Positions 1 to 23,680 of a stretch of DNA of 36,285 nucleotides are shown here, one piece after another. The DNA comes from Acidimicrobiaceae bacterium (GTDB taxonomy: Bacteria > Actinomycetota > Acidimicrobiia > Acidimicrobiales > Aldehydirespiratoraceae): contig VYCW01000069.1 in NCBI GenBank assembly GCA_009843735.1, forward strand, positions 1-36,285, in the 5' to 3' direction. The notes under the pieces were generated by a model. That model did not search any database. It had not been told where the DNA came from and saw only the letters and a program-made list of their open reading frames with translations. The number at the start of each line of letters is the position of its first letter. Positions within the stretch are counted from its first letter, which is position 1. A program made the position numbers and the translations under genes.

Positions 1-350
1 AGTACACCGCGGTGATCTACGGGGGCGTGATGGCCGGGCTGGGCGGCGCCTACCTGTCGCTGGCGGGGGGGAACCAGTTCTTCGACGACATCGTCGCCGG
101 ACGGGGATGGATCGCCCTGGCCATCGTGATCTTTGGGAACTGGCGGGCGTCGTGGATCCTGGGCGGCTCGCTGCTGTTCGGGTTCCTCGAGGCCACCCAG
201 TTGTCGCTGCAGGCCAGCGGTGTGGACCTGCCCTACCAGCTCCTGCTGGCCCTGCCGTTCATTCTGACGATCGTCGCGCTGGTGTTCAACCGCAGCCGCT
301 CCCAGGTCCCGCTGTCGCTGACCATCCCGTACCACCGGGGCGAGCGCTAG
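1..350 (+). CDS. ABC transporter permease, BMP/nucleoside type (C-terminal part only)
   Basis: This is the 3' end of a gene that starts before the window; the frame is open from base 3 and ends at TAG 348-350. The roughly 115 visible residues are hydrophobic and align along their length with the end of the complete permease at 11894-12838: both have AGRGWIALAIVIFGNWR, then a QLSLQA segment, a QLLLALPF segment and a final RGER. By family knowledge this is one of the two membrane subunits of a BMP-type (purine nucleoside/nucleobase) ABC importer in the inner membrane. The next gene, a molybdenum hydroxylase subunit, begins 17 bp downstream, so import and oxidation genes are probably co-transcribed. 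The partner permease, ATPase and binding protein should lie just outside the left edge. Confidence 0.88.
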   Translation, partial: YTAVIYGGVMAGLGGAYLSLAGGNQFFDDIVAGRGWIALAIVIFGNWRASWILGGSLLFGFLEATQLSLQASGVDLPYQLLLALPFILTIVALVFNRSRSQVPLSLTIPYHRGER

Positions 351-367
351 AAGACACTCGAGCGGCG

Positions 368-2797
368 ATGAGCCTCGATATCGACTCCCACATCCGCCAC
401 AGCACCCGCCACATCGGACGCTCGGTCCCGAGGCGGGAGGACCGGGGCCCGCTCACCGGCCGTGGGCGCTACGTCGCCGACATCAAGATCGTTGGGATGC
501 TCGAGGTCGTCCTCGTGCGCAGCATCGAGGCCCACGCCCGCATCGTGTCTATCGACACGTCAGAGGCCCTGGCCGTCGAGGGCGTGCAGGCGGTGTTCAC
601 CGCGGCCGACCTGGCCGACGTCAAGACCTTCCCGGACTACATCCCCTACATAGGCCCGGTCAAGCAGCGCCCGCTCGCCGAGGACCGGGTGCGATACGTG
701 GGTGCTCCCTACGCCGCCGTGGTTGCGGTGGACCGCTACATCGCTGAGGACGCCGCCGCGCTGGTCGCGGCGGGGACCACCTACGAGCCGCTGCCGACGG
801 TGGCCGATCTCGACCAGGCCCTGGCCCCCGGAGCGCCCACGCTCCACGACCACTGGGAGAGCAACTACTCGTTCGACGTGGCCACCCACAAGCCCGAGGT
901 CGACCACGCCTTCGAGCAGGCCGACCACACCTTCTCCGAGACCTACGTCAGCCAGCGCCAGACGGGACTGCCGATGGAGACCAGGGGAGTGGTGGCCGAC
1001 ATCACCGACGGGACGCTCACGGTGTGGTCGTCGACGCAGAGCCCGCACATGGTCCGTTCCACCGTCGCGCTGATGCTGGGCATGCCTGAGCCGCAGGTGC
1101 GGGTGGTCCATCCGACCATCGGGGGCGGCTTCGGCACCAAGACCCACATATACCCCGAGGACATCGTGGTTCCCTGGATCGCTCGCCGGCTCGACCAGCC
1201 GGCCCGCTGGATCGAGGACCGCATGGAGAACCTAGTGGCGTCGGTGCACGCCCGTGAGCAGCGCCACGACGTCGAGGTCGCCTACGACGACGACGGCACC
1301 ATTCGGGGGGTGCGCTGCGCGTCGATGCTCGACATGGGCTCCGGCGAGATCTTCATGCCAGGCACCGCGCCGGTCTTCGTGACCAATGCCTGCATCACCG
1401 GCGGCTACGACTTCCCCAACATGCAGGCCCGCACCATCGGCGTGGTCACCAACAAGACCCCGGCCGGTGCCTACCGGGGCTTCGGGATTCCCGAGGGCGC
1501 GTTCGTCATGGAGCGGATAATCGACCGGGTCGCCCGCCTTACCGGCACCGACCGGGTCGAGCTGAGACGGCGGATGCTGGTGCGACCCGGTCAGACGCCG
1601 TATGTGATGCACGGCGGGGGCCGACTCGACTCGGGCTCCCACACAGAGTCGTTCGAACGTGCCCTGGAAATGGCTCAGCCCGCGCTGGAAAGGGCCCGCG
1701 CCCGCTACGCCGGCGACCCGGATGTCCGGGTGGGGGTCGGCTTCTCCAACTATGTCGAACCGACATCGCCCAGCTACCACCTGACCACCGGACACTGGGG
1801 CGGCGGGGACGCGGCCACGGTGCGGGTCGACCCGGACGGCTCGGTGCGGGTGGCGGCCGGACTCAGCGCCATCGGCCAGGGGGCCGAGACCACCGCGGCC
1901 CAGCTGGCGGCCGACGCTCTGGGGGTCTCGCCGGAGAACGTCACCGTGGTGCTGGGCGACACCGAGCGGGCCCCCTACGGCTTGGGCTCGTGGGGCAGCC
2001 GCGGCGCGATGATGCTCACCGGCTCGGTGCTACTGGCCTCCGAGCGGCTGATGGACAAGGCCCGGGCCATCGCCGCGCACATGCTTGAGGCGGCCGAGGC
2101 CGACATCGTGCTCACCGACGGCGCGTTCCATGTGGCCGGCAGCGACCAGCCCTCGGTGAGCTGGGCCGAGGTCGGCACCGCGGCGTGGATCCGCTATGTG
2201 GACCTGCCCGACGGCATGGAGCCCGGCCTGGAGACCTCGGGCTACTTCCACCCTGAGAACCTGCAGCATCAGCTCGACGACACCGGCAAGATCAACGCCG
2301 CGGCCAGCTGGTCCAACGGCGCCCACATCGGGGTGGTCAGCGTCCGGGTAAGCACCGGAGAAGTGAGGATCGAAGACTACGTCGTGGTCCACGACTGCGG
2401 GACGGTCATCAACCCCGCGCTGGTGGAGGGCCAGGTCCATGGCGGGGTGGCCCAGGGCATCGCCGGCGCCATGTACGAGCACTTCCAGTACGACCCCGAC
2501 ACGGCGAACCCCCGGTTCGCGTCGTTCATGGACTACCTGGTGCCAACGTGCGCCGAAGTACCTCGGATGGAGGTCGACCACTTCGAGTCGCCCGCCCCTG
2601 AACAGCCCCTCGGTGTCAAGGGCTGCGGCGAGGGAGGCACCGTGGGGCCGCCTGCGGTGGTGGCCGGAGCCGTCTCCGACGCCCTCTCCGAATGGGGTGT
2701 CGACCTCACCGAGTGCCCTGTGACTCCGGTGGCGGTGAGGGCCGCCATCCGATCGGCCGGCGCGGCCGGGGCCGGAGCAGCCGGAGCAGGATCGTGA
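368..2797 (+). CDS. Molybdenum hydroxylase large (molybdopterin-binding) subunit, CoxL/XdhA family, set A
   Basis: Predicted 809-residue catalytic subunit of a xanthine dehydrogenase/CO dehydrogenase-like enzyme that hydroxylates a C-H bond using the Mo-cytosine dinucleotide cofactor; cytoplasmic. Seen: the N-terminal aldehyde-oxidase a/b hammerhead region (from about RREDRGPLTGRGRYVAD), the cofactor loop GGGFGTK at 252-258, the active-site loop AYRGFG at 368-373, and a C-terminal GCGEGG with the expected catalytic Glu at 755. The loop lacks the AYxCSFR signature of form I CO dehydrogenase, so CO is unlikely to be the substrate; the loop is closer to the FRGFG of xanthine dehydrogenases. ATG 368 is chosen because family homology begins there; the Shine-Dalgarno site is weak. 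The stop overlaps the next start by 4 bp (GTGA), and genes for the FAD and FeS subunits follow. The exact substrate is unknown. Confidence 0.9.
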   Translation: MSLDIDSHIRHSTRHIGRSVPRREDRGPLTGRGRYVADIKIVGMLEVVLVRSIEAHARIVSIDTSEALAVEGVQAVFTAADLADVKTFPDYIPYIGPVKQRPLAEDRVRYVGAPYAAVVAVDRYIAEDAAALVAAGTTYEPLPTVADLDQALAPGAPTLHDHWESNYSFDVATHKPEVDHAFEQADHTFSETYVSQRQTGLPMETRGVVADITDGTLTVWSSTQSPHMVRSTVALMLGMPEPQVRVVHPTIGGGFGTKTHIYPEDIVVPWIARRLDQPARWIEDRMENLVASVHAREQRHDVEVAYDDDGTIRGVRCASMLDMGSGEIFMPGTAPVFVTNACITGGYDFPNMQARTIGVVTNKTPAGAYRGFGIPEGAFVMERIIDRVARLTGTDRVELRRRMLVRPGQTPYVMHGGGRLDSGSHTESFERALEMAQPALERARARYAGDPDVRVGVGFSNYVEPTSPSYHLTTGHWGGGDAATVRVDPDGSVRVAAGLSAIGQGAETTAAQLAADALGVSPENVTVVLGDTERAPYGLGSWGSRGAMMLTGSVLLASERLMDKARAIAAHMLEAAEADIVLTDGAFHVAGSDQPSVSWAEVGTAAWIRYVDLPDGMEPGLETSGYFHPENLQHQLDDTGKINAAASWSNGAHIGVVSVRVSTGEVRIEDYVVVHDCGTVINPALVEGQVHGGVAQGIAGAMYEHFQYDPDTANPRFASFMDYLVPTCAEVPRMEVDHFESPAPEQPLGVKGCGEGGTVGPPAVVAGAVSDALSEWGVDLTECPVTPVAVRAAIRSAGAAGAGAAGAGS

Positions 2798-3660
2798 AGC
2801 CGGCGCCGTTCGACTACTGCCGGCCCTCGACGGTGGCCGAGGCCGTCGAGGCTCTCAACTCCACCGAGTCGAGCCGGGTGCTGGCCGGGGGCCAGAGCCT
2901 CATCCCGGCCATGAACTTCCGCCTGACCGACGTGTCCGTGCTCGTGGACATCGGCCACGTCGAGGGGCTCGATACGGTGGCATGCGACCCGGGCGGGGTG
3001 ACCGTGGGAGCGGCCGCGACGCAGACCCAGGTGCTGGACGACGACGGTGTGGCCGGCGTCGTCGGTGGCTTGCGGGCCGCTCTGCGCCATGTCGGGCACC
3101 TCCAGATCCGCAACCGGGGCACGGTCTGCGGCAGCCTGGCTCACGCCGACCCCGCTGCCGAGCTGCCTGCACTCGCGGTCGCCTCCGGCGCGGTGATCGC
3201 CGTCTCCGGACCCGACGGTGAACGCCGGGTCGATGCCGGGGACTTCTTCATCGGGCCGTTCTGGACGGCTCTCGAAGACGGCGAGCTCATCACCGAGGTG
3301 CGCTTTCCGGCGCCGCCGCCCGGCTCGGTGACCATCGTGGACGAGATCTCCCGCCGGGCCGGTGACTTCGCGGTGGCCGGCCTGGTCGCGACGGTGCAAG
3401 CCGACGGCGGCGCGGTGCGCTCGGCCAGCCTGGTCGGCTTCGGGCTTGGGGGAGTGCCCACCCGGCTGGAGTCGGCCGAGGCCGCTATCGGGGGGTGGGC
3501 CGCGGACCACCCGGCGGAACCCCTCGCCGAGGCGGTGATGGCCGACACCGCTGACGCATTCGACGACATCCACGCTACGAGCTGGTACCGCAGCGAGGCG
3601 GTCGCCGCACTGACGGTCAGGGCCGCCCGGAGCGCCCTGGCCGCCGGGGAGGCCTCATGA
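2794..3660 (+). CDS. Molybdenum hydroxylase FAD-binding (medium) subunit, CoxM family, set A
   Basis: A 288-residue FAD subunit that takes electrons from the 2Fe-2S subunit and hands them to the final acceptor. Both FAD signatures of the CoxM/XdhB family are visible: AGGQS at residues 31-35 and, from about residue 106, RNRGTVCGSLAHADPAAELP. The length is normal for the family (about 280-300). The GTG at 2794 is chosen because MKPAPFDYCRP is the typical N-terminus and because it overlaps the large-subunit stop (GTGA), showing translational coupling. It ends in an ATGA overlap with the small-subunit gene. Compared with the set B paralogue (13952-14800) it has Cys instead of Gly in the second FAD motif, a variant I consider tolerated. 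Confidence 0.9.
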   Translation: MKPAPFDYCRPSTVAEAVEALNSTESSRVLAGGQSLIPAMNFRLTDVSVLVDIGHVEGLDTVACDPGGVTVGAAATQTQVLDDDGVAGVVGGLRAALRHVGHLQIRNRGTVCGSLAHADPAAELPALAVASGAVIAVSGPDGERRVDAGDFFIGPFWTALEDGELITEVRFPAPPPGSVTIVDEISRRAGDFAVAGLVATVQADGGAVRSASLVGFGLGGVPTRLESAEAAIGGWAADHPAEPLAEAVMADTADAFDDIHATSWYRSEAVAALTVRAARSALAAGEAS

Positions 3661-4172
3661 CCATCCGCGAACCGACCTCCGAGGTAGACGTCGAGATCAG
3701 CATCAACGGACGGCGCCACCGTCACCGGGTACCGGCCCGACTACTGCTGTCGGACTACATCCGCGACACCGTCGGCTTGACCGGCACCCACCTCGGCTGC
3801 GAGCACGGCTATTGCGGCGCCTGCACCGTGATCGTCGACGGCGACGCGGTGCGGTCCTGCCTGATGCTGGCGGCACAGGTCGACGGCGCCGAGGTCCGGA
3901 CCGTCGAGGACCTGGCGCCCGCAGGCTCGGACTCCCTGTCGCCGATGCAGCAGGCCTTCCACGACAATCACGCCCTGCAGTGCGGCTTCTGCACCGCAGG
4001 CTTCCTGATGACCCTGGAGAGCGTCGATCCCGGCGACTGGACTGGAAGGGAGCGCATCGTCGAGCTGCTGTCGGGCAATCTCTGCCGCTGCACCGGTTAC
4101 CAGAACATCGTGGACGCGGTGACCGAGGCCTGGAGCGCGTACCATGGAAGCGGAGGATCCAACGATGGCTGA
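3657..4172 (+). CDS. Molybdenum hydroxylase 2Fe-2S (small) subunit, CoxS family, set A
   Basis: A 171-residue iron-sulfur subunit relaying electrons from the molybdenum site to FAD. All eight cluster cysteines are visible: the plant-ferredoxin-type cluster at C48, C53, C56 and C68 (GCEHGYCGACT) and the second cluster at C109, C112, C143 and C145 (QCGFC and LCRCTGY). Gln108, just before the first Cys of the second cluster, is the residue that normally contacts the pterin cofactor. There is no signal peptide or Tat motif, so the complex is cytoplasmic. The start ATG overlaps the medium-subunit stop (ATGA), and the 3' end overlaps the ferredoxin gene by 8 bp, so L, M, S and ferredoxin are one translationally coupled unit. 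Confidence 0.93.
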   Translation: MTIREPTSEVDVEISINGRRHRHRVPARLLLSDYIRDTVGLTGTHLGCEHGYCGACTVIVDGDAVRSCLMLAAQVDGAEVRTVEDLAPAGSDSLSPMQQAFHDNHALQCGFCTAGFLMTLESVDPGDWTGRERIVELLSGNLCRCTGYQNIVDAVTEAWSAYHGSGGSNDG

Positions 4173-4371: not shown

Positions 4372-4383
4372 AGGGGCAGAGAC

Positions 4384-4404
4384 ATGAACGGGACGACGCC
4401 ATGA
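4384..4404 (+). other. Possible short upstream reading frame (MNGTTP) before Rieske oxygenase A
   Basis: A six-codon frame whose ATG (4384) has a better Shine-Dalgarno site (AGGGG at 4372-4376, 7 nt away) than the oxygenase itself. Its TGA overlaps the oxygenase ATG as ATGA (4401-4404). It could load ribosomes onto the oxygenase start by reinitiation. It may equally be chance; no peptide function is implied. Confidence 0.3.
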
Positions 4405-5486
4405 CCATGACCCAGGATCCGGCCGCACCCGAAGGATTCGAGGTACAGGGGAACACCCAGCTCGACATGGCCGGCGAGGAGCGGCTCTACCAGCAGCTGA
4501 AGCGCTTCTGGCAGCCGGTGGCCTTCTCGGACGACCTGACCGACTCGCCCCATCAGGTCACGCTGTTCGACACCCGCCTGGCCGTGGCCCGCCTCGACGG
4601 CGAGCCCCACGTCTTCAGCGACATCTGCCGGCACCGGGGCTCGGCCCTGTCGCTGGGGCGGGTCGACGGCTGCTGGCTGCGCTGCGCCTACCACGGCTGG
4701 GCCTACGACGCCGAGGGCACCGTTGTCGACATCCCGGCCAGGCCCGAGCTGAACGGCAAGCTGACAGCCCAGTTGCCGAGCTACCCGACGATCGAGGCTG
4801 GTGGCCTGGTGTGGACGTGCATCTCGGGCGAGACGCCGCGGTTCGGTCCGTCGGAGTGCCCCGAACTGGACGATCCCTCATACCGGTTCCTGCGCTTCGA
4901 TCCCTACGAGTGGGACTGCTCGGTGGCCCGGCGCCTGGAGAACTACTTCGACTTCTCCCACTTCGCGCACGTGCACCACGGCATTCTCGGCGACCGCGAC
5001 GAGGCTGAGATCGCCGACTACGACGTGGCCCGACACGGCTCGGAGCTGAGGATCACCGCCGGTCCGTTCATCGAGTACACCGACAATGTCAAAAACTCGG
5101 CGGTCAACCACGACGGACTGACCTACGAGGCATGGAAGCGCTACCGGGTGTACATGCCCAACGCCATGAAGCTCAACAGCTCGGCCGGGGTGACCGAGGA
5201 CTTCGTGCTGTACGTCGCCGTCGCGCCGGTCAACCGGCGCCGGACCCGGTGCTTCACTTTCGTGGGCCGGAACTACGCGCTGGACCGCGACCAGGAGTTC
5301 CACGACATGCAGTACGTGATCCTGGGCCAGGACCAACCCATCGTCGAGTCGCAGCGGCCTGAGGAGCTGCCGGTGGATCTGACCGCCGAGATGCACGTCA
5401 AGGGAGCCGACGCGGGCACCGTGGAGTACCGGCGCTGGCTCATAAGCATCGCTGACGGCGAGATCGAGCTCGCCCCGACCGCTTGA
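4401..5486 (+). CDS. Rieske non-heme iron oxygenase, alpha subunit (A)
   Basis: A 361-residue oxygenase component that uses O2 and two electrons for hydroxylation or oxidative dealkylation. The Rieske 2Fe-2S ligands are C76-R-H78 and C95-x2-H98 (CRHRG and CAYHGW). The mononuclear iron site is N181-x2-D184-x2-H187-x4-H192 (NYFDFSHFAHVH); D184 is the usual bridging Asp. The family includes vanillate, dicamba and methylxanthine N-demethylases as well as aromatic monooxygenases; the sequence alone does not separate these. ATG 4401 lies just upstream of the domain; ATG 4407 is a possible alternative. It is a clear paralogue of the gene at 12915-13955 (shared RLENYFDFSHF, TDNVKN and LNSSAG). Ferredoxin and molybdenum hydroxylase genes precede it. 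Confidence 0.9.
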   Translation: MTMTQDPAAPEGFEVQGNTQLDMAGEERLYQQLKRFWQPVAFSDDLTDSPHQVTLFDTRLAVARLDGEPHVFSDICRHRGSALSLGRVDGCWLRCAYHGWAYDAEGTVVDIPARPELNGKLTAQLPSYPTIEAGGLVWTCISGETPRFGPSECPELDDPSYRFLRFDPYEWDCSVARRLENYFDFSHFAHVHHGILGDRDEAEIADYDVARHGSELRITAGPFIEYTDNVKNSAVNHDGLTYEAWKRYRVYMPNAMKLNSSAGVTEDFVLYVAVAPVNRRRTRCFTFVGRNYALDRDQEFHDMQYVILGQDQPIVESQRPEELPVDLTAEMHVKGADAGTVEYRRWLISIADGEIELAPTA

Positions 5487-5524
5487 CGTTCAACTCGCCT
5501 CGCGGCTCCAGCCCTGCGGGCGGG

Positions 5525-5530
5525 TACCGT
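5525..5530 (+). promoter_or_regulatory. Probable -10 element (TACCGT) of a leaderless promoter for the GroES gene
   Basis: TACCGT fits TAnnnT and lies 8 nt before the GTG at 5539. The same hexamer at the same distance precedes the ABC ATPase gene (9225-9230). It supports GTG 5539 as the true start and an independent transcript. No clear -35 is seen. Confidence 0.45.
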
Positions 5531-5538
5531 TGGGATCC

Positions 5539-5922
5539 GTGACCACGACCGAGCCCCGGGCTGACACTGTGTCCCGCAACAATTCCGCCCCCGGCCCTCA
5601 CGACGACGACCGTCTACCGGTCAAGATGCTCAACGACCGGATCCTGGTGGCCGTGGGCGAGGCCGAGGGCGAGCGCCGCTCGACCGGCGGCATCCTCATC
5701 CCGGCCACCGCCCAGGTGGGCAAGCGCCTCACCTGGGCCGAGGTGGTGGCGGTCGGCCCCAACGTCCGCAACATGGAGAAGGGCGACCGGGTGCTGTTCA
5801 ACCCCGAGGACCGCTACGAGGTCGAGGTACGGGGCCGCGACTACATCATCCTGCGCGAGCGCGACATCCACGCGGTGGCCGCGGAGCGCCTGGACAAGGG
5901 CAGCACCGGCTTGTACCTCTAG
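5539..5922 (+). CDS. GroES-like co-chaperonin (10 kDa chaperonin paralogue)
   Basis: A 127-residue protein with a Cpn10 domain from about residue 29 to the end: LNDRILVAVGEAEGERRSTG (strand plus mobile loop), GGILIPATA, then a GDRVLFNP turn and a DYIILRERDIHAV tail. The first 30 residues are a polar, Ser/Asn/Asp-rich extension not found in classical GroES (about 97 aa). The family caps the GroEL chaperonin in the cytoplasm. There is no groEL next to it, so it is likely a second, stand-alone paralogue. GTG 5539 is chosen from the upstream TACCGT element; TTG 5530 and ATG 5626 are alternatives. It probably has its own promoter and need not belong to the catabolic operon. Confidence 0.82.
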   Translation: MTTTEPRADTVSRNNSAPGPHDDDRLPVKMLNDRILVAVGEAEGERRSTGGILIPATAQVGKRLTWAEVVAVGPNVRNMEKGDRVLFNPEDRYEVEVRGRDYIILRERDIHAVAAERLDKGSTGLYL

Positions 5923-14800: not shown

Positions 14801-15300
14801 CCGCTCCAACCGCACGGCGGGTCGAGCCCTCAGTCGAAGTGCCGATCAGCGTGACCGTCAACGGAGAGGCGGTCGAGGCGGTGGTCCCGGCTCGCCAGCT
14901 GCTGGCCGACTTCCTGCGGGAGGAGCTGCGCCTCACCGGCACCCACGTCGGCTGCGAGCAGGGGATCTGCGGAGCATGCACCATCAACCTCGACGGCGAG
15001 CCGGTGCGGTCCTGCATCATGCTGGCCGCCCAGGTCGACGGATCGGCCATCACCACGGTGGAGGGACTGTCGTCGGAGGGCCTGAGCCCGCTTCAACAGG
15101 CCTTCAAGGACAACCATGGCCTGCAGTGCGGGTTCTGCACCCCGGGATTCCTCATGACGCTGTCGACCGTGGACCCCGACGAATACCCCGGGGAGGAGGG
15201 GATCCGCGAGGCCATCTCGGGCAACCTCTGCCGCTGCACCGGTTACGGCGGCATCCTCCAAGCGGTGCGGACCGCCTGGAATCGCCCCCAGGATGCCTGA
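14797..15300 (+). CDS. Molybdenum hydroxylase 2Fe-2S (small) subunit, CoxS family, set B
   Basis: A 167-residue iron-sulfur subunit with all eight ligands: C53, C58, C61 and C73 (GCEQGICGACT) and C111, C114, C145 and C147 (QCGFC and LCRCTGY), with Gln110 next to the pterin-facing cluster. The start has an excellent ribosome site, AGGAGGT at 14784-14790, 6 nt upstream, which rules out earlier in-frame starts. The 3' end overlaps the large-subunit start by 8 bp. It carries electrons between the large (15293-17674) and medium (13952-14800) subunits; it might also serve the orphan large subunit at 21293 (inference). Confidence 0.94.
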   Translation: MTAPTARRVEPSVEVPISVTVNGEAVEAVVPARQLLADFLREELRLTGTHVGCEQGICGACTINLDGEPVRSCIMLAAQVDGSAITTVEGLSSEGLSPLQQAFKDNHGLQCGFCTPGFLMTLSTVDPDEYPGEEGIREAISGNLCRCTGYGGILQAVRTAWNRPQDA

Positions 15301-17674
15301 CACCTTCGAGCTGGGCGGCCGCCCGGTCTACACGGGGGCTCACGTCACCCGCCGGCAGGACGACGCCCTGCTCAGCGGCCAGGGCACCTACGTCGCCGAT
15401 CTCCGCCCCAGCGGCATGGCCGAGATAGCGGTGGTCCGCAGCCCGATCGCGCACGGCCGCATCACCGCTATCCACACGGCCGCGGCAGCCGCCGTCGACG
15501 GCGTGATCGAGGTGATCACCGCCGCCGACCTCACCGATGTCGCTCCCTATCCCAACTTCGCCGACGCCTACACCCAGACGCCCGGAACGTTCCCGCTGGC
15601 GCAGGACAAGGTGCGCTACGCGGGTTCTCCGGTGGCGGTGGTGTTGGCCGAGGACCGCTACATCGCGGAGGACGCGGCCGAGCTGGTGGAGGTCGACTAC
15701 ACCGAACTGCCCGCGGTCACCTCCCTGGAGGCCGCGCTGGAGCCTGATTCGCCTCGGCTCTTCGAGGACTGGCCCAACAACCGGCTGCTGGACCTGCAGC
15801 CCGACGACTCGGAGGTAGCCGCCATCCTGGCCGGCAACCGGGTGCTTCGGCGCCGCTACAAGATGGGTCGCCACACCGCCATGCCCATGGAGACCAGGGC
15901 CGCGCTGGCCGAGGTGCACGGCGGCCGTCTCCATCTGTGGTGCACCAACCAGCACGCCCACATCGCCCGCACCACGCTGTCGTACGTGCTGCCACTGGCC
16001 GAGCGCGACATCAGGGTGGTCATTCCCTACGTCGGCGGCGGCTTCGGGCTCAAGCAGCATCTGTATCCCGAGGATGTTCTCGTGTCCTGGCTGGCGCTCC
16101 GCCACGATCGTCCGGTTCGCTTCGTCGAGGACCGAGCCGAGCACATGATCGCCGCGGCCCATGCCCGCGACCACATGATCGACATCGAGGCGGCCATCGC
16201 CGACGACGGCCGGATCCTGGCCATGCGGGTCCAGGTCGTCCAGGACCTCGGCTCAGCCGAGATCTTCCCCGGGGCCTGGTGCCCCGCGCTGACCACGGCA
16301 GCCCACATGACCGGCCCCTACGACATCCGCGACTGCGTTGTGTCGGTGGCCGCGGTGACCACCAACAAGACCCCCGGCGGTTCGTACCGGGGCTTCGGGG
16401 TGCCCGAAGCGGTGTTCGCGCTCGAAAGGTTCATCGACGAGATCGCCGACGAGGTGGGCGCGGACCGTCTCGATCTGCGCCGGTCGATGCTGCTGCAACC
16501 GGCGGACCTGCCCTACACCACCGCCTCGGGCGCGCTGCTGGATTCGGGCAGCTTCGCCGAGTCGTTCGAGAGGGTGGTCGAACTGGGCGAGCACGCCTAC
16601 CAGCGGGCCGATGCCCGCTATCGATCCGATCCCGACTCGCGAATCGGGGTGGGCTACGCGGTCCTGTTCGAGGGCGTCTCGCCAACCCACCACGGCGCCT
16701 CCGCGCACTGGATGGGACACGAGTCGTGCACTATCGAGGTCCAGCCCGACGGCGGTGTGCGGGTGGCGTCGGGCGTCACCGACCAGGGCCAGGGAACGAC
16801 CACGTTCGTGGCCACCCTGACCGCCGACGCGCTAGGAGTCCCGATGGAGACCGTCCGCGTCGAGTTGGCCGACTCCGACGCCACGCCGTACGGCCTGGGC
16901 GCCTTCGGCTCCCGCCAGGCCGTCATCGGCGGCGGCGCCATCCTCCTGGCTGCGGCCGAGGTCCGGGGCAAGGTCAAGAGGATCGCGGCCCACATGCTGG
17001 AGGCCCCCGAGGACGACCTGGTGATCGAGGCCGGACGGGTCCACGTGGCCGGCAGCCCGGTGCCGGCGGTGACCATGGCCGAGATAGCCACCACGGCCGT
17101 TATCAGGACCATCGACCTGCCGCCGGGAATGGAACCGGGCCTGGAGGCGACCGCCCGGTACGAGCCCGAGCTCATGGAGCACACGCCCGACGAGAAGGGC
17201 CGGATCAACGCCAACGCGGCCTACGCCAACGCAGCCCATGCCGCCGTCATCCGGGTCGACCTGGGGACCGGCGAGATCGAGATCCTCAACTACATCCTGG
17301 CCCACGACTGCGGCCGGGTTATCAACCCCCCGATCGTCGACGGCCAGATCTGGGGCGGGATCGCCCAGGGCCTCGGCGGGACCCTGTACGAGGACCTGTG
17401 CTTCAACGACCTGGGCCAGCCCCAGACCGCCTTCATGGACTATCTCGTGCCGTCGGCGATCGAGATGCCCGACCTAGTGATCGAGCACTTCGAGAGCCCG
17501 TCGCCGAACACGCCCCTCGGGATGAAGGGTGTCGGCGAGGGCGGGACGGTCGGACCGGCGGCGGCCATCGGCAACGCTCTGGCCCAGGCCCTGGCCGAGT
17601 TCTCGCCCCAGATCCATGAGACGCCGCTGAGCCCGGCCGTGGTCCGGGCGATGATCCTCGACCAGCCGGCCTGA
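15293..17674 (+). CDS. Molybdenum hydroxylase large (molybdopterin-binding) subunit, CoxL/XdhA family, set B
   Basis: A 793-residue catalytic subunit. Landmarks: RRQDDALLSGQGTYVAD (start of the hammerhead domain), GGGFGLKQ at 248-255, the active-site loop SYRGFG at 364-369, DQGQGTTTFV in the C-terminal domain, and GVGEGG with the catalytic Glu at 749. The Gln after the cofactor loop is characteristic of the family. The loop is not the AYxCSFR of form I CO dehydrogenase. The ATG overlaps the small-subunit gene by 8 bp. It is the last gene of module B and converges with the SsnA-like gene after only 12 bp. It is much closer in its motifs to the orphan copy at 21293 than to set A. Confidence 0.92.
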   Translation: MPDTFELGGRPVYTGAHVTRRQDDALLSGQGTYVADLRPSGMAEIAVVRSPIAHGRITAIHTAAAAAVDGVIEVITAADLTDVAPYPNFADAYTQTPGTFPLAQDKVRYAGSPVAVVLAEDRYIAEDAAELVEVDYTELPAVTSLEAALEPDSPRLFEDWPNNRLLDLQPDDSEVAAILAGNRVLRRRYKMGRHTAMPMETRAALAEVHGGRLHLWCTNQHAHIARTTLSYVLPLAERDIRVVIPYVGGGFGLKQHLYPEDVLVSWLALRHDRPVRFVEDRAEHMIAAAHARDHMIDIEAAIADDGRILAMRVQVVQDLGSAEIFPGAWCPALTTAAHMTGPYDIRDCVVSVAAVTTNKTPGGSYRGFGVPEAVFALERFIDEIADEVGADRLDLRRSMLLQPADLPYTTASGALLDSGSFAESFERVVELGEHAYQRADARYRSDPDSRIGVGYAVLFEGVSPTHHGASAHWMGHESCTIEVQPDGGVRVASGVTDQGQGTTTFVATLTADALGVPMETVRVELADSDATPYGLGAFGSRQAVIGGGAILLAAAEVRGKVKRIAAHMLEAPEDDLVIEAGRVHVAGSPVPAVTMAEIATTAVIRTIDLPPGMEPGLEATARYEPELMEHTPDEKGRINANAAYANAAHAAVIRVDLGTGEIEILNYILAHDCGRVINPPIVDGQIWGGIAQGLGGTLYEDLCFNDLGQPQTAFMDYLVPSAIEMPDLVIEHFESPSPNTPLGMKGVGEGGTVGPAAAIGNALAQALAEFSPQIHETPLSPAVVRAMILDQPA

Positions 17675-17686
17675 CCGCGCCGAAAC

Positions 17687-19054: not shown

Positions 19055-19087
19055 CTGTGCTCCGCCGACCCCCGCACGGCGGCCGGC

Positions 19088-20107
19088 CTAGAACCCGTCG
19101 GCGAAGGCATCGATCACCTCGCGGATGTTGCCCCTCAGCGGGTACATGATCGGGCACGTCACCCCCGCGTCGACGTACTCGCGGACCTTGCGGCGGCAGT
19201 CCTCGGCGGTGCCTACGGCCATGATGTCGCGCACGATCTCGGACGGGATGACCGCGCTGGCCCGCTCGTAGTCCTCCTCGGTGGCCGGCCAGCCCATCAA
19301 CGCCTTCGCCCTCTCGGCCACCTCCTCGCTGACGCCGCTGGCCTTCATGATGTGGGGCTCGGTGGCGAAGTAGTAGGCGGCCAGCTTCTTGCCCTCGTGC
19401 AGCGCGACGTCGGGGTCGTCGTCGCACATAGACACCACGATCAGCTCGGGCAGGTCGATGTCGGAGATCGACCGGCCCGACCTCTCCGCCCCCTTCCCCA
19501 CCAGCGCGATGGCCCGGCGGATGTAGTCGACCGACACGCCGTAGTTGAGGCACACCCCGTCGCAGATCTCCCCGGCCAGCTCGAGCATCCTGGGGCCGGT
19601 GGCGCCCAGGTAGATGGGTATGTCACGGGGAGAGGTGTCCCCCCACACCACATCGAGGCTCACCCCGTCCAGGCGGACGAAGTCCCCGCTGTAGGTCACC
19701 GGCTCCATGGTGAACAGGGCCCTGACGGCCTCGATGTTCTCCCGCATGGCGGTGAGCGGGCGGACCAGGTCGACGCCGACCCGGCCCGCGATCGGCTCCC
19801 ACCACGCCCCGAGGCCGAGCATGACCCGGCCCTGCCCGTCGACCTTGCCGCCCAGTTCCCACATGGTGCTGAAGCTGGCTGCGATCACCACCGGGTTGCG
19901 GGTCCAGATGGGCAGCACCCCGGCCGCTACCTTGATGCGACGGGTGTGAGTCAGGAACGCGCTCATAGCCACGACGCAGTCGCGGGCCAGGCGGTTGTCG
20001 CCCTGCCAGATCTCGCTGAAGCCCCGGTCCTCCATGTACAGGGCGAGGTCGAGTTCCTCGCGGATGTCGATCCGGTCCTGCATGTAGATGGCCATGCGCT
20101 GGGTCAT
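19088..20107 (-). CDS. LLM-class flavin/F420-dependent oxidoreductase (luciferase-like)
   Basis: A 339-residue TIM-barrel oxidoreductase. Characteristic parts are [17 protein letters not shown] at the N-terminus, [21 protein letters not shown], the glycine turn [32 protein letters not shown] and a final [18 protein letters not shown]. These match actinobacterial luciferase-like proteins that use F420 or FMN; which one cannot be decided by eye. GGAGGTGG, about 5 nt before the ATG, fixes the start. It lies between the adenosine-deaminase-like and SsnA-like genes with short gaps, so it probably oxidises or opens a ring in the same pathway. RutA, which opens uracil, is a precedent for this superfamily, but identity with RutA is not claimed. 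Confidence 0.87.
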
Positions 20108-20149
20108 CGCGCCACCTCCAGCCGCGCCGGCAGGGTCCGGGCGGCGCGG

Positions 20150-21166
20150 TCAGCTGCCGAAGTCGAAGGCATCGATGGCTGCGAGCAGTTCGGCCCGCAG
20201 AGGGTCCGGGCAGAAGCTCGCCTCGACGGATGTCCTGGCTAGCTGCCGCAGCACGTCGCTGGACCAGCCGTAGACCTCGCTGGCGGTCACGTACTCGTCC
20301 TCCAGGGTGATCCGGTAGAAGCCGGACCCGTCGGTGTTGAGGGTGACCCGGGCCCCGGCGTCGACCAGGGTCCGGATCGGGTGCGACTCCCGGCTGGGGT
20401 ACAGGCCGAGCAGGACGTTGGACCACGGGCAGACGTTCAGGAAGATGCCCCGCTCGACCAGTTCCTCGACCAGCTCGGGGTCCTCCACGGACCGCACGCC
20501 GTGGTCGACTCGCTGGGTCTTGAGCAGGTCGATGGCGTCCCACACCCCTTCGGGGCCGCTCGACTCGCCCGCGTGGGCCCGGATCCCGAGCCCGGCCGCC
20601 CGGGCCCGCTTGAACACGGGGGCGAAGCGATCGCCGGTGCGCCCCACCAGGGCCTCGTTCCCGTCGATGGACAGGGCCGCCACCCTGGGGTGCTGCATGG
20701 CCAGCATGGTGTCGAGCACGGCGTGGGCCTCGGCCCGGCTGTGCTTGCGGGAGATGCTGATCGACAGGTACACCGGCGGGTAGCCGTCGCGCTCGGCGTC
20801 CTCTAGCCCCGACGCCACCGCGGCGATGAACTCCTCAAGAGGGCCGTCGAAGTTCTTCCAGTGGATGGGGCTGACCATCAGGTCGGTGTAGGAGACTCCC
20901 GAGCGGCCCTGGCGCCTGGCAACCGAGTACGACAGCGACGCCACCTGCTCGGCGTCGCGGGGCAGGCACAGGACCCAGTCGAGGAAGGTCAGGAACTCCT
21001 GGAGGTCCTCCCAGTCGAACATGGCGTCGGGCGGCTCCTTGAGCAGGGGAACGCCGTTCTCGGTGGCCAGCCTTACCGCGTCCTCCACCTCGAACCCGCT
21101 GTCGAGATGGAGGTGCAGCTCCGCTTTGGGGAGCCTGCGGACAGTGTCCGCGGTGATGGAGCCCAT
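20150..21166 (-). CDS. Adenosine deaminase-family protein with an altered active-site Asp
   Basis: A 338-residue zinc amidohydrolase. Metal and catalytic residues: H18 and H20 in KAELHLHLD, H198 and E201 in RAHAGES, H222 in RVDHGVRS, and D279 in LNTDGSGFYRITLEDEY. Adenosine deaminases normally have TDDP here; the second Asp, which contacts the purine, is Gly280 in this protein. This suggests a related but different substrate, for example a modified adenine base or nucleoside (inference). The length is normal. ATG 21166 is preferred because GAGAGG lies 9 nt upstream; ATG 21175 would leave that site touching the start. It is the first gene of the minus-strand operon, divergent from the orphan large hydroxylase subunit. 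Confidence 0.85.
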   Translation of the reverse strand: MGSITADTVRRLPKAELHLHLDSGFEVEDAVRLATENGVPLLKEPPDAMFDWEDLQEFLTFLDWVLCLPRDAEQVASLSYSVARRQGRSGVSYTDLMVSPIHWKNFDGPLEEFIAAVASGLEDAERDGYPPVYLSISISRKHSRAEAHAVLDTMLAMQHPRVAALSIDGNEALVGRTGDRFAPVFKRARAAGLGIRAHAGESSGPEGVWDAIDLLKTQRVDHGVRSVEDPELVEELVERGIFLNVCPWSNVLLGLYPSRESHPIRTLVDAGARVTLNTDGSGFYRITLEDEYVTASEVYGWSSDVLRQLARTSVEASFCPDPLRAELLAAIDAFDFGS

Positions 21167-21210
21167 GGTGCCCATCCTCTCAGGCGCCGCGGCGGGCGCC
21201 CCGATACTGT

Positions 21211-21216
21211 TTGACA
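21211..21216 (+). promoter_or_regulatory. Possible -35 (TTGACA) in the divergent spacer
   Basis: A perfect TTGACA lies in the 126-bp region between the divergent adenosine-deaminase-like and orphan coxL genes, inside a short AT-richer patch. No good -10 follows at the usual distance, so an activated promoter or chance match is possible. A 7-bp inverted repeat (GTTGCCG 21220-21226, CGGCAAC 21254-21260) brackets the downstream segment. Confidence 0.3.
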
Positions 21217-21292
21217 ATGGTTGCCGGTACCCGCGGCCGAGCCGTGCCGCAGGCGGCAACGTTAGCGGGCCTCGTCCAGAGGTGAGAAGGCC

Positions 21293-23680
21293 GTGATCAA
21301 CACATCAGAGATCGAGCCCCCGCCCCGGCCGCTGTATGTCGGCGCCAACGTCACCCGGCCGGGCGACGACAACCTGCTGCGCGGTAGGGGGACTTTCGTG
21401 GCCGACATCCGGCTGAACGGCACCGTCGAGATGGTCATGGTGCGCAGCCCATACGCCCATGCCGAGATCGTGTCGATCGACGCCGACGCGGCCCGGGCCC
21501 TTCCGGGCGTGATCGCGGTCTGGACCGCGGCGGACCTCCACGGGGTGTCCCCGTTCCCGGACCTGGCCGCCCTGGCCGCGCCGGTGGCGATGCTGCCTCT
21601 GGCCACCACCAAGGTCAGGTATGTGGGCATGCCGGTGGCGGCGGTGGTGGCCGAGGACCGATACATCGCCGAGGACGCCGCCGAACTGGTTGCGGTCGAG
21701 TACTCGCCGCTGACGCCGGTCACGAGCATCGAGCAGGCGCTCGATGCGGCTTCTCCCCGGCTGTTCGAGGGCTGGGACAGCAACCGGCTCGTCGATCTCG
21801 CTATCTCGATTCCGGCGGTCGACGAGGCCATCGAGGCCGCGGGCTCGACGTTGAAGCGCCGTTACCGCATCGGCCGCCACACAGCCATGCCGATCGAGAC
21901 CCGCGCCACCGTCGCCGAATTCGACGGCAGCCGCCTCCATGTGCGGGCCTGTTGCCAGACCCCGCACATGATGCGGACCGCGCTGTCATATGTGCTGCCC
22001 ATAGGGGAGTCCGACATCAGGGTGACGGCACCGTCCGTCGGCGGCGGGTTCGGGCAGAAGCAGCACAACTACCCCGAGGACGTGCTGGTGTGCTGGGCGT
22101 CCATGCAGTTGCGCCGCCCAGTGCGCCACCAGGAGGACCGGACCGAGCACATGCTGGCGTCCGCCCACTCCCGCGACCAGGCGATCGAGATCGAGGCGGC
22201 CCTCGGCAGCGACGGCGTGATTGAGGCCATCCGGTGCCACATCTACCAGGACGCCGGATCGGGCGAGGTCTGGCCCGGAGGGTTCTGCCCCTCGCTGACC
22301 ACCGCGGGCCACATGACCGGCCCCTACCGGATCGACTTGGCCGCCGTCAGCGTGACCGCGGTGGTCACCAACAAGACCCCTTCGGGGTCCTACCGGGGTT
22401 ACGGCATTCCGGAGGCCTGTTTCGCGCTCGAGCGCTTCATCGACGACATCGCCGCGGCCGGAGGCCACGATCGCCTGGAGTTGCGGCGCAAGATGCTGCT
22501 CAAGCAGTCCGACTTCCCGTATCGCACCGCCGGTGGCGCGCACCTCGACTCGGGCACCTACCGGGAGTGCTTCGAGCGCATCGTCGAACTGGCCGAGGCC
22601 CGCTACGCCGACCATGTGGCTGAGTCGGACGGCGCAGAGCTCATCGGCGTCGGCTACGCGACCTACCGCGAAGGGACGGCGCCCAGCCACTACACCGTCG
22701 CCGGTCATTGGACGGGGTACGAGGCGTGCCGGATCGAGATCGACCCAAGCGGGACCGCGCTGGTGTCCTCGGGCATGACCGATCAGGGCCAGGGCACGTA
22801 CACGTTCGTGCAGACCCTGACCGCCGATGCGTTGGCGCTGGACCTCGACCGGGTGCGGGTGCGCCTGGGCGACACCGACCAGTGCCCCTACGGCCTGGGT
22901 GCGTGGGGCAGCCGCCAGGCTGTGGTGGGCGGCGGCGCCCTCCTGAACGCGGCGTCGGCGATCCGCGCCAAGGCTTCGGCCATCGCGGCCCACATGCTGG
23001 AGGCGAACCCCGACGATGTGGTGCTCGACGACGACGGCTTCCATGTGCGGGGGTCGCCGTCACCTGCGGTTTCGTGGCAGCAGATCGGCACCGCGGCCAC
23101 CATCCGGACCCTTGAGCTGCCCGAAGGCATGGACCCCGGCCTGGCCGCCACCGCCCGCTACGAACCGGAGATCCTCGAGCACGAGGTGAACGCGGACGGG
23201 GGCATCAACGCGGCCGCGGCCTGGGTCAACGCCACCCATGCCGCCATCGTGCATGTGGACGGGACCACGGGCGCGGTGGAGATCCTGGACTATCTCGTCG
23301 CCCACGACTGCGGCCCGATCATCAACCCGCCGATCGTGCTGGGCCAGATCGTGGGCGGCGTCGCTCAGGGCATCGGCGGCACGCTCTATGAGGACCTTGC
23401 CTACAACGAGGACGGCCAACCCCAGACCGCGTTCATGGACTACCTGGTGCCCTCGGCTATCGAGATGCCCGACCTCGTGGTCGAGCACTTCGGCAGCGAC
23501 TCCGAGCTGACCCCGCTGGGGATCAAGGGTGTCGGCGAGGGTGGCACGGTCGGGCCACCCGCGGCGATCACCAACGCGGTCGCCCACGCTCTGGCCGACT
23601 ACCACCCCGACGTGTCGGAGACCCCCCTGACGCCCGAGAGGGTCCTCCGGCTGATGGGCAAGCTCCCACTACCGAACTGA
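21293..23680 (+). CDS. Orphan molybdenum hydroxylase large subunit, CoxL/XdhA family (third copy)
   Basis: A 795-residue catalytic subunit with the complete set of motifs: TRPGDDNLLRGRGTFVAD, GGGFGQKQ at 250-257, the active-site loop SYRGYG at 366-371, DQGQGTYTFV, and GVGEGG with Glu749. It aligns end to end with the 15293-17674 product (for example the shared block TPLG-KGVGEGGTVGP) and is a paralogue, diverged in the substrate loop (RGYG versus RGFG). No medium or small subunit gene is next to it, so it must borrow them from set A or B, or from elsewhere. GTG 21293 has AGAGG about 10 nt upstream. It is divergent from the adenosine-deaminase operon and followed by an SDR gene 108 bp on. Confidence 0.9.
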   Translation: MINTSEIEPPPRPLYVGANVTRPGDDNLLRGRGTFVADIRLNGTVEMVMVRSPYAHAEIVSIDADAARALPGVIAVWTAADLHGVSPFPDLAALAAPVAMLPLATTKVRYVGMPVAAVVAEDRYIAEDAAELVAVEYSPLTPVTSIEQALDAASPRLFEGWDSNRLVDLAISIPAVDEAIEAAGSTLKRRYRIGRHTAMPIETRATVAEFDGSRLHVRACCQTPHMMRTALSYVLPIGESDIRVTAPSVGGGFGQKQHNYPEDVLVCWASMQLRRPVRHQEDRTEHMLASAHSRDQAIEIEAALGSDGVIEAIRCHIYQDAGSGEVWPGGFCPSLTTAGHMTGPYRIDLAAVSVTAVVTNKTPSGSYRGYGIPEACFALERFIDDIAAAGGHDRLELRRKMLLKQSDFPYRTAGGAHLDSGTYRECFERIVELAEARYADHVAESDGAELIGVGYATYREGTAPSHYTVAGHWTGYEACRIEIDPSGTALVSSGMTDQGQGTYTFVQTLTADALALDLDRVRVRLGDTDQCPYGLGAWGSRQAVVGGGALLNAASAIRAKASAIAAHMLEANPDDVVLDDDGFHVRGSPSPAVSWQQIGTAATIRTLELPEGMDPGLAATARYEPEILEHEVNADGGINAAAAWVNATHAAIVHVDGTTGAVEILDYLVAHDCGPIINPPIVLGQIVGGVAQGIGGTLYEDLAYNEDGQPQTAFMDYLVPSAIEMPDLVVEHFGSDSELTPLGIKGVGEGGTVGPPAAITNAVAHALADYHPDVSETPLTPERVLRLMGKLPLPN

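What the first reader, a model, noticed from the sequence alone, without database searches (positions are those of the whole stretch)
1..23680. Candidate uncharacterised (methyl-)purine or N-heterocycle uptake and oxidation system
Within 24 kb lie a BMP-type importer, a guanine/cytosine-type deaminase, an SsnA-like amidohydrolase, an adenosine-deaminase relative, an LLM oxidoreductase, three molybdenum hydroxylase large subunits, two Rieske oxygenases and a GcvT-family protein. Known precedents exist for pieces: guaD-ssnA-xdhD in E. coli, Rieske N-demethylases (NdmA/B) and a xanthine-dehydrogenase-like caffeine dehydrogenase in Pseudomonas, and PnrA as a purine nucleoside-binding BMP protein. 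I know of no described pathway that combines all of them. A model of import, deamination, oxidative and folate-linked demethylation, then ring oxidation explains every gene class. The substrate is inferred only.
Basis: partly seen in the sequence, partly recalled or inferred. Interest (0 to 1): 0.8.

Follow-up and report, generated by a model that had tools for sequence, protein, structure and literature searches.

The report
Candidate sponge-bacterium methylpurine import and breakdown cluster
A gene cluster in what look like sponge-associated Acidimicrobiia bacteria carries the parts needed to import purine-like compounds, strip amino and probably methyl groups, oxidise the ring and open it without uricase; the substrate is predicted, not shown.

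Summary
The contig belongs to an Acidimicrobiia MAG. Rsk2 orthologues lie in 12 of 16 genus genomes; importer-deaminase and MoB-ADA modules come and go together. Evidence favours purines: NdmA/NdmB are the best sequence matches of both Rieske enzymes among solved structures; the binding protein folds like AtzT and nucleoside binders; 26 of 54 related Rieske loci outside the genus carry purine-type deaminase/amidohydrolase genes, 0 of 40 control stretches do. Uricase and OHCU decarboxylase: 0 of 16 genus genomes. Against: the Rieskes lie outside the NdmA/B clade, Rsk1's fold fits hydroxylases SxtT/GxtA equally, and no NdmD-type reductase or diaminopropionate lyase was found. Substrate, methyl removal and all reactions are inferred.

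The parts
3..350 (+). 3' end of the permease of a second (upstream) importer; the contig begins here
   Evidence: BPD_transp_2 3.8e-5, 23.4 bits, just under the cut-off 26.8; in 7 of 7 genus stretches a BMP-ATPase-permease-permease set precedes MoA
368..2797 (+). MoA_L, molybdenum hydroxylase large subunit (AYRGFG, KGCGEGG)
   Evidence: MoCoBD_1, MoCoBD_2, Ald_Xan_dh_C; motifs
2794..3660 (+). MoA_M, FAD subunit
   Evidence: FAD_binding_5, CO_deh_flav_C; start from the codon model
3657..4172 (+). MoA_S, 2Fe-2S subunit
   Evidence: Fer2, Fer2_2
4401..5486 (+). Rsk1, Rieske oxygenase; Q and L at the positions that are N282/F286 in NdmA (numbers recalled) and Q/L in NdmB
   Evidence: Rieske + VanA_C; best PDB sequence match NdmA 143 bits; model pLDDT 89
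5530..5922 (+). second, divergent GroES-like (Cpn10) protein
   Evidence: Cpn10 70.7 bits; another copy elsewhere at 108.5 bits
6017..7246 (-). GcvT-family tetrahydrofolate protein
   Evidence: GCV_T, GCV_T_C; best NCBIfam TMAO demethylase C-terminal part 176 bits; best PDB aminomethyltransferase 1yx2 109 bits
7512..8630 (+). BMP-family substrate-binding lipoprotein (lipobox-like LVAC)
   Evidence: Bmp 100.9 bits; AtzT best in sequence and fold; only NCBIfam match ABC_BMP_B6 81 bits, cut-off 400
8700..9191 (+). CDA-fold nucleobase deaminase
   Evidence: dCMP_cyt_deam_1; best PDB 8wlw/5xkq (recalled as MSMEG_3575), then guanine deaminases 1wkq/1tiy
9239..10780 (+). ABC ATPase (two ABC domains)
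   Evidence: ABC_tran, two stretches
10777..11901 (+). ABC permease 1
   Evidence: BPD_transp_2 142 bits
11894..12838 (+). ABC permease 2
   Evidence: BPD_transp_2 136 bits
12915..13955 (+). Rsk2, Rieske oxygenase (A/T at the NdmA 282/286 positions)
   Evidence: Rieske + VanA_C; best PDB NdmA 139.1 and NdmB 138.5 bits, SxtDIOX close at 131.3
13952..14800 (+). MoB_M, FAD subunit
   Evidence: FAD_binding_5, CO_deh_flav_C
14839..15300 (+). MoB_S, 2Fe-2S subunit
   Evidence: Fer2, Fer2_2
15293..17674 (+). MoB_L, molybdenum hydroxylase large subunit (SYRGFG)
   Evidence: best PDB quinoline 2-oxidoreductase 477 bits
17687..19054 (-). SsnA-like amidohydrolase (candidate purine ring-cleaving enzyme)
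   Evidence: NF005540 SsnA 439.9 bits, cut-off 444
19088..20107 (-). F420-type LLM oxidoreductase (candidate dearomatising reductase, partner of SsnA)
   Evidence: Bac_luciferase; best NCBIfam F420_mer 149 bits, cut-off 348.7; linkage
20150..21175 (-). adenosine/adenine deaminase family protein
   Evidence: TIGR01430 245 bits, cut-off 216.55; best PDB 3rys, 3ou8
21293..23680 (+). MoC_L, third Mo hydroxylase large subunit without its own FAD/FeS subunits; 61% identical to MoB_L
23807..24526 (+). SDR oxidoreductase at the edge of the cluster, before HisI and the trp genes; role unknown
   Evidence: adh_short_C2; best NCBIfam pyridoxal 4-dehydrogenase 186.5 bits, cut-off 325

Best explanation
A modular locus for uptake and aerobic breakdown of purines, most likely N-methylated purines or their nucleosides. 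The BMP lipoprotein and ABC importer bring the compound in. The CDA-fold and ADA-family enzymes deaminate guanine/isoguanine- and adenine-type bases. The molybdenum hydroxylases (MoA, MoB, and MoC perhaps borrowing MoB's small subunits) add oxygen to the ring. Rsk1 and Rsk2 remove N-methyl groups oxidatively, and the GcvT protein may catch the formaldehyde on tetrahydrofolate. The LLM reductase then dearomatises the ring with F420H2 and SsnA hydrolyses it, so uricase is not needed. Shown: the genes, their families, their conservation and linkage, and that uricase and OHCU decarboxylase were not found in the genus. Inferred: every reaction, the methyl groups, the order of steps, and the fate of the ring-opened product.
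For: Rieske best PDB sequence matches NdmA/NdmB. BMP fold nearest AtzT, then guanosine-bound Lbp, adenosine-bound BmpD and PnrA, ahead of sugar-binding proteins. BMP, CDA, ABC, Rsk2 and MoB genes run head to tail on one strand with short gaps or overlaps, kept in relatives. Rieske loci outside the genus carry purine-type deaminase/amidohydrolase genes in 26 of 54 against 0 of 40 controls. LLM relatives in 101 of 395 Acidimicrobiia; SsnA-family in 46 and Mo hydroxylase/XDH in 46 of 60 sampled LLM loci, against 0 and 2 of 40 controls. Other loci join XDH-SsnA-LLM-Rieske with ADA, nucleoside hydrolase, adenine deaminase or diaminopropionate lyase (L129, L136, L231), and one Rieske from each such locus that was put in the tree (L125, L128, L135, L136) groups with NdmA/B at 100/100. 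SsnA is the assayed ring cleaver of the reductive uric-acid pathway, and an F420 luciferase-family gene stands in for YgfK in Chloroflexota (PMC12507026, abstract and passages). Uricase 0 of 16, OHCU decarboxylase 0 of 16 genus genomes. In the own genome 4 of 6 BMP genes lie within 5 kb of such a Rieske gene. Sponges contain 1-methyladenine, herbipoline, dimethylisoguanines and theophylline (PMC5793054, passages).
Against: Window Rieskes are only 31-33% identical to NdmA/B and lie outside the NdmA/B-containing clade. The Rsk1 model matches hydroxylases SxtT/GxtA as well as NdmA and better than NdmB; Rsk2's lead over SxtDIOX in sequence is small (139 vs 131 bits). Rsk2 has A/T at the NdmA 282/286 positions. 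No PF00175 reductase domain in the 84.6%-complete assembly. The Mo subunits score far below the curated xanthine dehydrogenase cut-offs and MoB is nearest quinoline 2-oxidoreductase. The only NCBIfam match of BMP is a putative B6 transporter protein and the best of the SDR is pyridoxal 4-dehydrogenase, both far below cut-off. The core BMP-ABC-MoA-Rieske of other Acidimicrobiia lacks the purine deaminases, and SsnA/LLM are missing from this locus in 7 of 12 genus genomes that keep Rsk2. No diaminopropionate lyase over cut-off in 16 genus genomes. GcvT, CDA and LLM linkage to Rieskes outside the genus (2, 4 and 5 of 54) is not significant. Hits counted as SsnA-family (80 bits or more) may include other amidohydrolases.
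Confidence: 0.45

Rival explanations
1. The cluster handles a different methylated or oxygen-substituted N-heterocycle (triazine-, quinoline-, pyridine/B6- or guanidinium-type compounds); the deaminases and amidohydrolases act as general C-N hydrolases.
For: Best PDB matches are AtzT (named as an atrazine binding protein) for BMP and quinoline 2-oxidoreductase for MoB; SxtT/GxtA tie with NdmA by fold. BMP's only NCBIfam match is a putative B6 transporter protein and the SDR's best is pyridoxal 4-dehydrogenase, both below cut-off. The core BMP-ABC-MoA-Rieske of 8 loci in other Acidimicrobiia shows no purine deaminase.
Against: Repeated linkage of related Rieskes with ADA, Ade, CDA and SsnA-family genes, 26 of 54 loci vs 0 of 40; independent loci with nucleoside hydrolase and diaminopropionate lyase.
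Confidence: 0.24
2. Ordinary (unmethylated) purine or nucleoside breakdown: import, deamination, ring oxidation and SsnA/LLM ring opening; the Rieske enzymes hydroxylate the ring or act on a side chain rather than remove methyl groups.
For: SsnA-LLM-XDH mostly occurs without a Rieske gene: Rieske in 1 of 60 LLM loci. SxtT/GxtA hydroxylases are equally close in fold.
Against: Best sequence matches among solved structures, NdmA/NdmB, demethylate methylxanthines; Rsk1 shares NdmB's Q/L pair.
Confidence: 0.15
3. Not one pathway: a hot spot where modules for different substrates have collected (core MoA-Rsk1-Cpn10-Rsk2 with the upstream importer; BMP-CDA-ABC cassette; SsnA-LLM-ADA-MoC).
For: Modules are separately present or absent among 12 genus genomes; three Mo hydroxylases and, in relatives, two importers side by side.
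Against: The complete importer cassette and MoB-ADA are both present in 6 and both lacking (remnants in 2) in 5 of the 11 genomes where both can be seen; Rsk2 and MoB lie in the importer's gene string.
Confidence: 0.16

Closest known systems
Caffeine N-demethylation system NdmA/NdmB/NdmD, Pseudomonas putida CBB5 (PMC4408171, passages read)
   Same: Two co-encoded Rieske/VanA_C-type oxygenases whose best sequence matches among solved structures are NdmA and NdmB; Rsk1 shares NdmB's Q/L residues.
   Different: 31-33% identity, separate clade, no NdmD-type reductase found, and an SsnA/LLM pair is present.
Caffeine C-8 oxidation cluster cdhABC-tmuM-tmuH-tmuD, Pseudomonas sp. CBB1 (PMC4408171, passages)
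   Same: Three-subunit Mo hydroxylase proposed to oxidise a methylated purine ring.
   Different: CBB1 continues by urate-type oxidation (tmuM, tmuH, tmuD); none of the window genes identified is of those types, and OHCU decarboxylase was not found in the genus.
Reductive uric-acid (yanthine) pathway, E. coli/C. difficile and its putative F420 variant in Chloroflexota (PMC12507026, abstract and passages)
   Same: SsnA-like enzyme beside an F420-type luciferase-family reductase and near xanthine-dehydrogenase-like enzymes.
   Different: Linked here to Rieske oxygenases, BMP importer and deaminases; no YgfK/UacX, HyuA, YgeY or YgeX type was identified in the cluster. The paper's text, as seen, names SsnA in Actinomycetota but gives the F420 variant for Chloroflexota only and does not mention Rieske enzymes (0 occurrences).
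PnrA/BmpD/AtzT BMP-family binding proteins
   Same: Family (Bmp over cut-off) and fold; guanosine- and adenosine-bound members follow AtzT.
   Different: About 18-26% identity; ligand unknown. The family also holds uridine-, thymidine- and riboflavin-bound members.
Sponge-symbiont CoxL (COG1529) enzymes surveyed in PMC8941161 (passages)
   Same: Same large-subunit family; that survey already says many CoxL homologues act on other substrates and links a xanthine dehydrogenase subunit group to one Acidimicrobiia MAG.
   Different: The passages seen do not describe a Rieske-BMP-SsnA gene cluster; 'purine' does not occur in its main text.

Membership tests
NdmA/NdmB methylxanthine N-demethylases | Rieske 2Fe-2S ligands and mononuclear iron 2-His-1-Asp site | tested here: met
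   C96, H98, C115, H118, D202, H205, H210, D331 of Rsk2 invariant in the 7-row alignment; matching columns invariant in 50 rows. Which residues bind metal is recalled family knowledge
NdmA/NdmB methylxanthine N-demethylases | Closest characterised structures are NdmA/NdmB | tested here: inconclusive
   Yes by sequence; SxtT/GxtA tie with NdmA by fold
NdmA/NdmB methylxanthine N-demethylases | Falls inside the NdmA/NdmB clade | tested here: not met
   NdmA/B group at 100/100 with 7 other rows (six Actinomycetota, one Acidobacteriota); window Rsk1 and Rsk2 lie in another clade of the midpoint-rooted tree
NdmA/NdmB methylxanthine N-demethylases | Dedicated NdmD-type (FNR-like) reductase | tested here: not met
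   None identified in the cluster; PF00175 0 matches in the 84.6%-complete genome, control rings in 10 of 14 genomes
NdmA/NdmB methylxanthine N-demethylases | Releases formaldehyde from N-methylxanthines | not testable with these tools
   Needs enzyme assay
Reductive uric-acid (SsnA) pathway | SsnA orthologue | tested here: inconclusive
   NF005540 439.9 bits, cut-off 444; TIGR03314 411.2, cut-off 455.5
Reductive uric-acid (SsnA) pathway | Dearomatising reductase beside SsnA (YgfK, UacX or F420 luciferase-family) | tested here: met
   LLM gene 33 bases from SsnA; SsnA-family gene in 46 of 60 LLM loci, 0 of 40 controls. Activity not tested
Reductive uric-acid (SsnA) pathway | Xanthine-dehydrogenase-like XdhD/XdhA partner | tested here: inconclusive
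   Mo hydroxylases on both sides, but far below XDH cut-offs; own paralogous loci on C36 and C125 pair SsnA-LLM with XDH-like genes
Reductive uric-acid (SsnA) pathway | Diaminopropionate ammonia-lyase (YgeX) | tested here: not met
   0 of 16 genus genomes over cut-off with either model; present in L136 at 348.8 bits, cut-off 276
Oxidative (uricase) purine pathway | Uricase and OHCU decarboxylase | tested here: not met
   PF01014 0 of 16, PF09349 0 of 16 genus genomes; controls ring in 2 and 4 of 14. Other urate oxidase types were not searched
Aerobic CO dehydrogenase form I (CoxL) | AYxCSFR active-site motif (recalled) | tested here: not met
   AYRGFG, SYRGFG, SYRGYG in MoA, MoB, MoC; no AYxCSFR in the 20 own-genome loci read, several of them fragments
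BMP/PnrA purine-nucleoside binding proteins | Family model over cut-off and fold | tested here: met
   Bmp 100.9 bits, cut-off 24.1; fold
BMP/PnrA purine-nucleoside binding proteins | Binds purine nucleoside | not testable with these tools
   Needs ligand assay

The most novel reading that the evidence does not exclude
Acidimicrobiia of sponges run a so far undescribed hybrid route for the host's methylated purines: oxygen-dependent N-demethylation by a new Rieske clade, molybdenum ring hydroxylation, then F420H2-dependent reductive dearomatisation and SsnA ring cleavage in place of uricase. Part of the many 'CoxL' genes of sponge Actinobacteria, often read as CO oxidation, would then serve purine chemistry.
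Probability: 0.3. Interest if true: 0.8.

Novelty: new variant of a known kind. Interest (0 to 1): 0.6.

Why it matters
Sponge symbiont genomes hold many CoxL-family genes, many of unknown substrate (on average 12 per genome in Actinobacteria; PMC8941161, passages read), and sponges contain many methylated purines (PMC5793054, passages) for which my searches showed no described microbial sink. This cluster offers a concrete substrate class for some of those genes, gives genetic context in Acidimicrobiia to the putative F420 variant of the uricase-free purine pathway, and points to a named relative with a complete chromosome (Aquihabitans sp. G128, L134; taken to be cultured) that carries a Rieske of the NdmA/B-containing clade beside nucleoside hydrolase and deaminase genes, though no SsnA-LLM pair was seen in that 21-kb stretch.

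Tried and rejected
Rejected for this genus, with the caveat that FAD-type urate oxidases were not searched.

CO dehydrogenase: considered because the best NCBIfam scores of MoA/B/C are CoxL models; rejected as form I because scores are far below cut-off and the motif differs.

Complete E. coli-like reductive pathway: rejected for the genus because no diaminopropionate lyase passes the cut-off (weak PALP matches only). A D-hydantoinase over cut-off is found in 15 of 16 and an M20 carbamoylase in 16 of 16, neither tied to the cluster.

NdmD-type reductase: none found. The electron donor of the Rieskes is unexplained; the Pyr_redox protein at 30754-32568 is nearest MerA/lipoamide-dehydrogenase-type models, below cut-off, and was not pursued.

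Cpn10 as a pathway part: 0 of 54 loci outside the genus; left unexplained.

Vitamin B6: the only NCBIfam match of BMP and the best of the SDR are B6 proteins, far below cut-off; not pursued, kept in the first rival.

Paper searches in the held open library showed no description of this combination; subscription papers and preprints are not covered. One search looked for the NdmA N282/F286 residues and found nothing usable; that numbering is recalled, the 'QL mutant' label of 6icp/6icq is from PDB titles.

Controls: 40 arbitrarily placed 19-kb stretches of 17 genomes of the class, none of the window's genus. The 60 LLM loci were chosen from the places listed, mostly the best-scoring. Loci are not independent (some share a contig, a genome or a genus), so the p-values are indicative only. 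The genus group (15 loci) was set by isolate names and kept out of the 54; the genus of the others was not checked.

On checking, I added the B6 matches and the small NdmA-SxtDIOX margin, which I had left out, and lowered the main confidence from 0.47 to 0.45 for them.


Full report
What is there. Gene calling by codon usage with Pfam and NCBIfam confirms every gene class in the finding. From left to right: the end of another importer's permease (3-350); a Mo hydroxylase MoA (L, M, S; 368-4172); Rieske oxygenase Rsk1; a GroES-like gene; a GcvT-family gene on the minus strand; then one string of plus-strand genes with short gaps or overlaps: BMP lipoprotein, CDA-fold deaminase, ABC ATPase, two permeases, Rsk2, MoB (M, S, L). 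On the minus strand follow SsnA-like amidohydrolase, LLM oxidoreductase and an ADA-family deaminase; divergently, MoC_L and an SDR; then HisI and a trp operon. The window starts at base 1 of contig C99 of a 3.43-Mb, 84.6%-complete assembly.

Whose genome. A scan of named genome contigs with the Rieske alignment returned 69 loci. The nearest are Acidimicrobiia/Acidimicrobiaceae MAGs. That they come from sponges is my inference from isolate names and recall, not from a tool.

Conservation. Rsk2 orthologues (81-97% identity in 11 relatives) occur in 12 of 16 genus genomes counting the window's own. MoB, SsnA, LLM and ADA are together in 5 (window, G008, G010, G001, G006), with MoC in 4 of these. 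Two (G003, G002) keep MoB and ADA but lack SsnA and LLM. Five (G009, G011, G012, G013, G014) lack MoB to MoC; of these G011 keeps CDA and G013 the two permeases. The full GcvT-BMP-CDA-ABC cassette is in the 6 genomes with MoB where it can be seen, not whole in the 5 without, and cut off by the contig end in G002. In 7 of 7 genus stretches MoA is preceded by another BMP-ATPase-permease-permease set; six of those stretches also reach a further Rieske and SDR upstream. In other Acidimicrobiia the conserved core is BMP-ABC-MoA-Rieske (L088-L091, L093-L095, L098). So the locus is modular.

Rieske oxygenases. Best PDB sequence matches are NdmA and NdmB (Rsk2 139.1 and 138.5 bits, SxtDIOX next at 131.3; Rsk1 143 bits with NdmA). 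The residues taken as iron ligands are conserved. A 52-row, midpoint-rooted tree joins NdmA/B at 100/100 with seven Rieskes from six Actinomycetota and one Acidobacteriota (39-45% identical to NdmB by BLAST); the window pair lies in a different clade at 31-33% identity. At the position of NdmA residue 282 (number recalled; 6icp/6icq are titled 'NdmA QL mutant') the 50 rows carry only N, Q, E or, in five Rsk2-type rows, A; Rsk1 has Q with L four further on, as NdmB does. The Rsk1 model (pLDDT 89) has SxtT/GxtA, NdmA and NdmB as its 31 best hits; SxtT (5.6e-29) and NdmA (6.6e-29) are level, NdmB weaker (1.9e-24), so fold does not separate hydroxylase from demethylase.

Importer, deaminases, Mo enzymes. 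The BMP model (pLDDT 85) is nearest AtzT, then guanosine-bound Lbp, adenosine-bound BmpD and PnrA; uridine-, thymidine- and riboflavin-bound members are also in the list, and sugar-binding proteins come at 1.6e-9 after the last of these at 4.6e-16. Its only NCBIfam match is a putative B6 transporter protein, 81 bits against a cut-off of 400. The CDA-fold enzyme is nearest 8wlw/5xkq and guanine deaminases; ADA passes TIGR01430 and is nearest 3rys and 3ou8, recalled as adenine deaminases. MoB is nearest quinoline 2-oxidoreductase. MoA, MoB and MoC carry the G-x-GE motif and AYRGFG, SYRGFG and SYRGYG, not the form I CO dehydrogenase motif.

Ring opening. SsnA with YgfK cleaves reduced 2,8-dioxopurine in the reductive uric-acid pathway, and in Chloroflexota a putative F420 luciferase-family gene stands in for YgfK (PMC12507026, abstract and passages). 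The window's SsnA (439.9 bits, cut-off 444) lies 33 bases from an F420-type LLM. This LLM type is in 101 of 395 genomes of the class. In 60 LLM loci fetched (own and genus paralogues among them, the window's own locus not) an SsnA-family gene is present in 46 and a Mo hydroxylase/XDH in 46, with nitrilase in 24, M20 in 19 and a PALP gene like that of L136 in 9; 40 controls had 0 SsnA and 2 Mo. Hits of 80 bits count, so some 'SsnA' may be other amidohydrolases. Loci L129, L136 and L231 join XDH-like, SsnA-like (34-35% identical to the window's in L129 and L136) and LLM genes to Rieskes and ADA, with adenine deaminase-like (L129), nucleoside hydrolase (L136, L231) or diaminopropionate lyase genes, the last over its cut-off in L136. 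In this genus uricase and OHCU decarboxylase were found in 0 of 16 genomes. But no diaminopropionate lyase passes the cut-off either, so the end of the route here is unknown.

Co-occurrence. In 54 Rieske loci outside the genus against 40 controls: Mo 24 vs 2, BMP 16 vs 0, SsnA-family 19 vs 0, ADA/Ade 11 vs 0, CDA 4 vs 0, any purine-type hydrolase or deaminase 26 vs 0, LLM 5 vs 0, GcvT 2 vs 0, Cpn10 0 vs 0; CDA, LLM and GcvT are not significant on their own. Loci are related and some share a contig, so the p-values overstate. Within the own genome 4 of 6 BMP genes lie within 5 kb of one of the 14 Rieske genes listed (15 were counted); 3 of 5 without the window.

Weak points. No NAD_binding_1-type reductase in the assembly: the Rieske electron donor is missing. 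Mo subunits are far below xanthine dehydrogenase cut-offs. The widest core lacks purine genes. That CoxL homologues of sponge bacteria often act on substrates other than CO is already in print (PMC8941161, passages). All chemistry is inferred.

Verdict. The finding stands as an observation; its purine reading is favoured, its methyl reading plausible, and the SsnA-LLM ring-opening step is the main addition. Filed as a new variant of known purine catabolic systems, not as a member of the Ndm or the E. coli reductive pathway.

Noticed in passing
5530-5922: A second, divergent GroES-like gene (71 bits; the other copy at G000:C42 scores 108.5) sits inside the cluster and is 93-100% identical in the genus relatives that show it; no role known.
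   Followed up: partly
21293-23680: MoC_L is an orphan large subunit, 61% identical to MoB_L, without its own FAD and 2Fe-2S genes; it may borrow MoB's small subunits.
   Followed up: partly
L199-L242 (LLM loci): A recurrent gene set M20 - nitrilase - XDH - SsnA - LLM (sometimes with a diaminopropionate-lyase-like PALP gene) in Acidimicrobiia genomes looks like an F420-dependent, uricase-free purine pathway.
   Followed up: partly
L001-L020: The own genome gives 23 Mo-hydroxylase large-subunit matches at about 19 places; none of the 20 loci read shows the form I CO dehydrogenase motif, two show AYRGAGR. Several are fragments.
   Followed up: partly
whole genome G000: 15 NdmA-like Rieske matches but no PF00175 reductase domain in the 84.6%-complete assembly; the electron donor is unknown.
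   Followed up: partly
24577-30728: HisI followed by trp genes with a YgfZ/GcvT-like gene and a DnaJ gene between TrpE and TrpF; order kept in the genus relatives that reach it.
   Followed up: no
30754-32568: Pyridine-nucleotide disulphide oxidoreductase with about 165 residues between its redox and dimerisation domains, which looks like an insertion.
   Followed up: no
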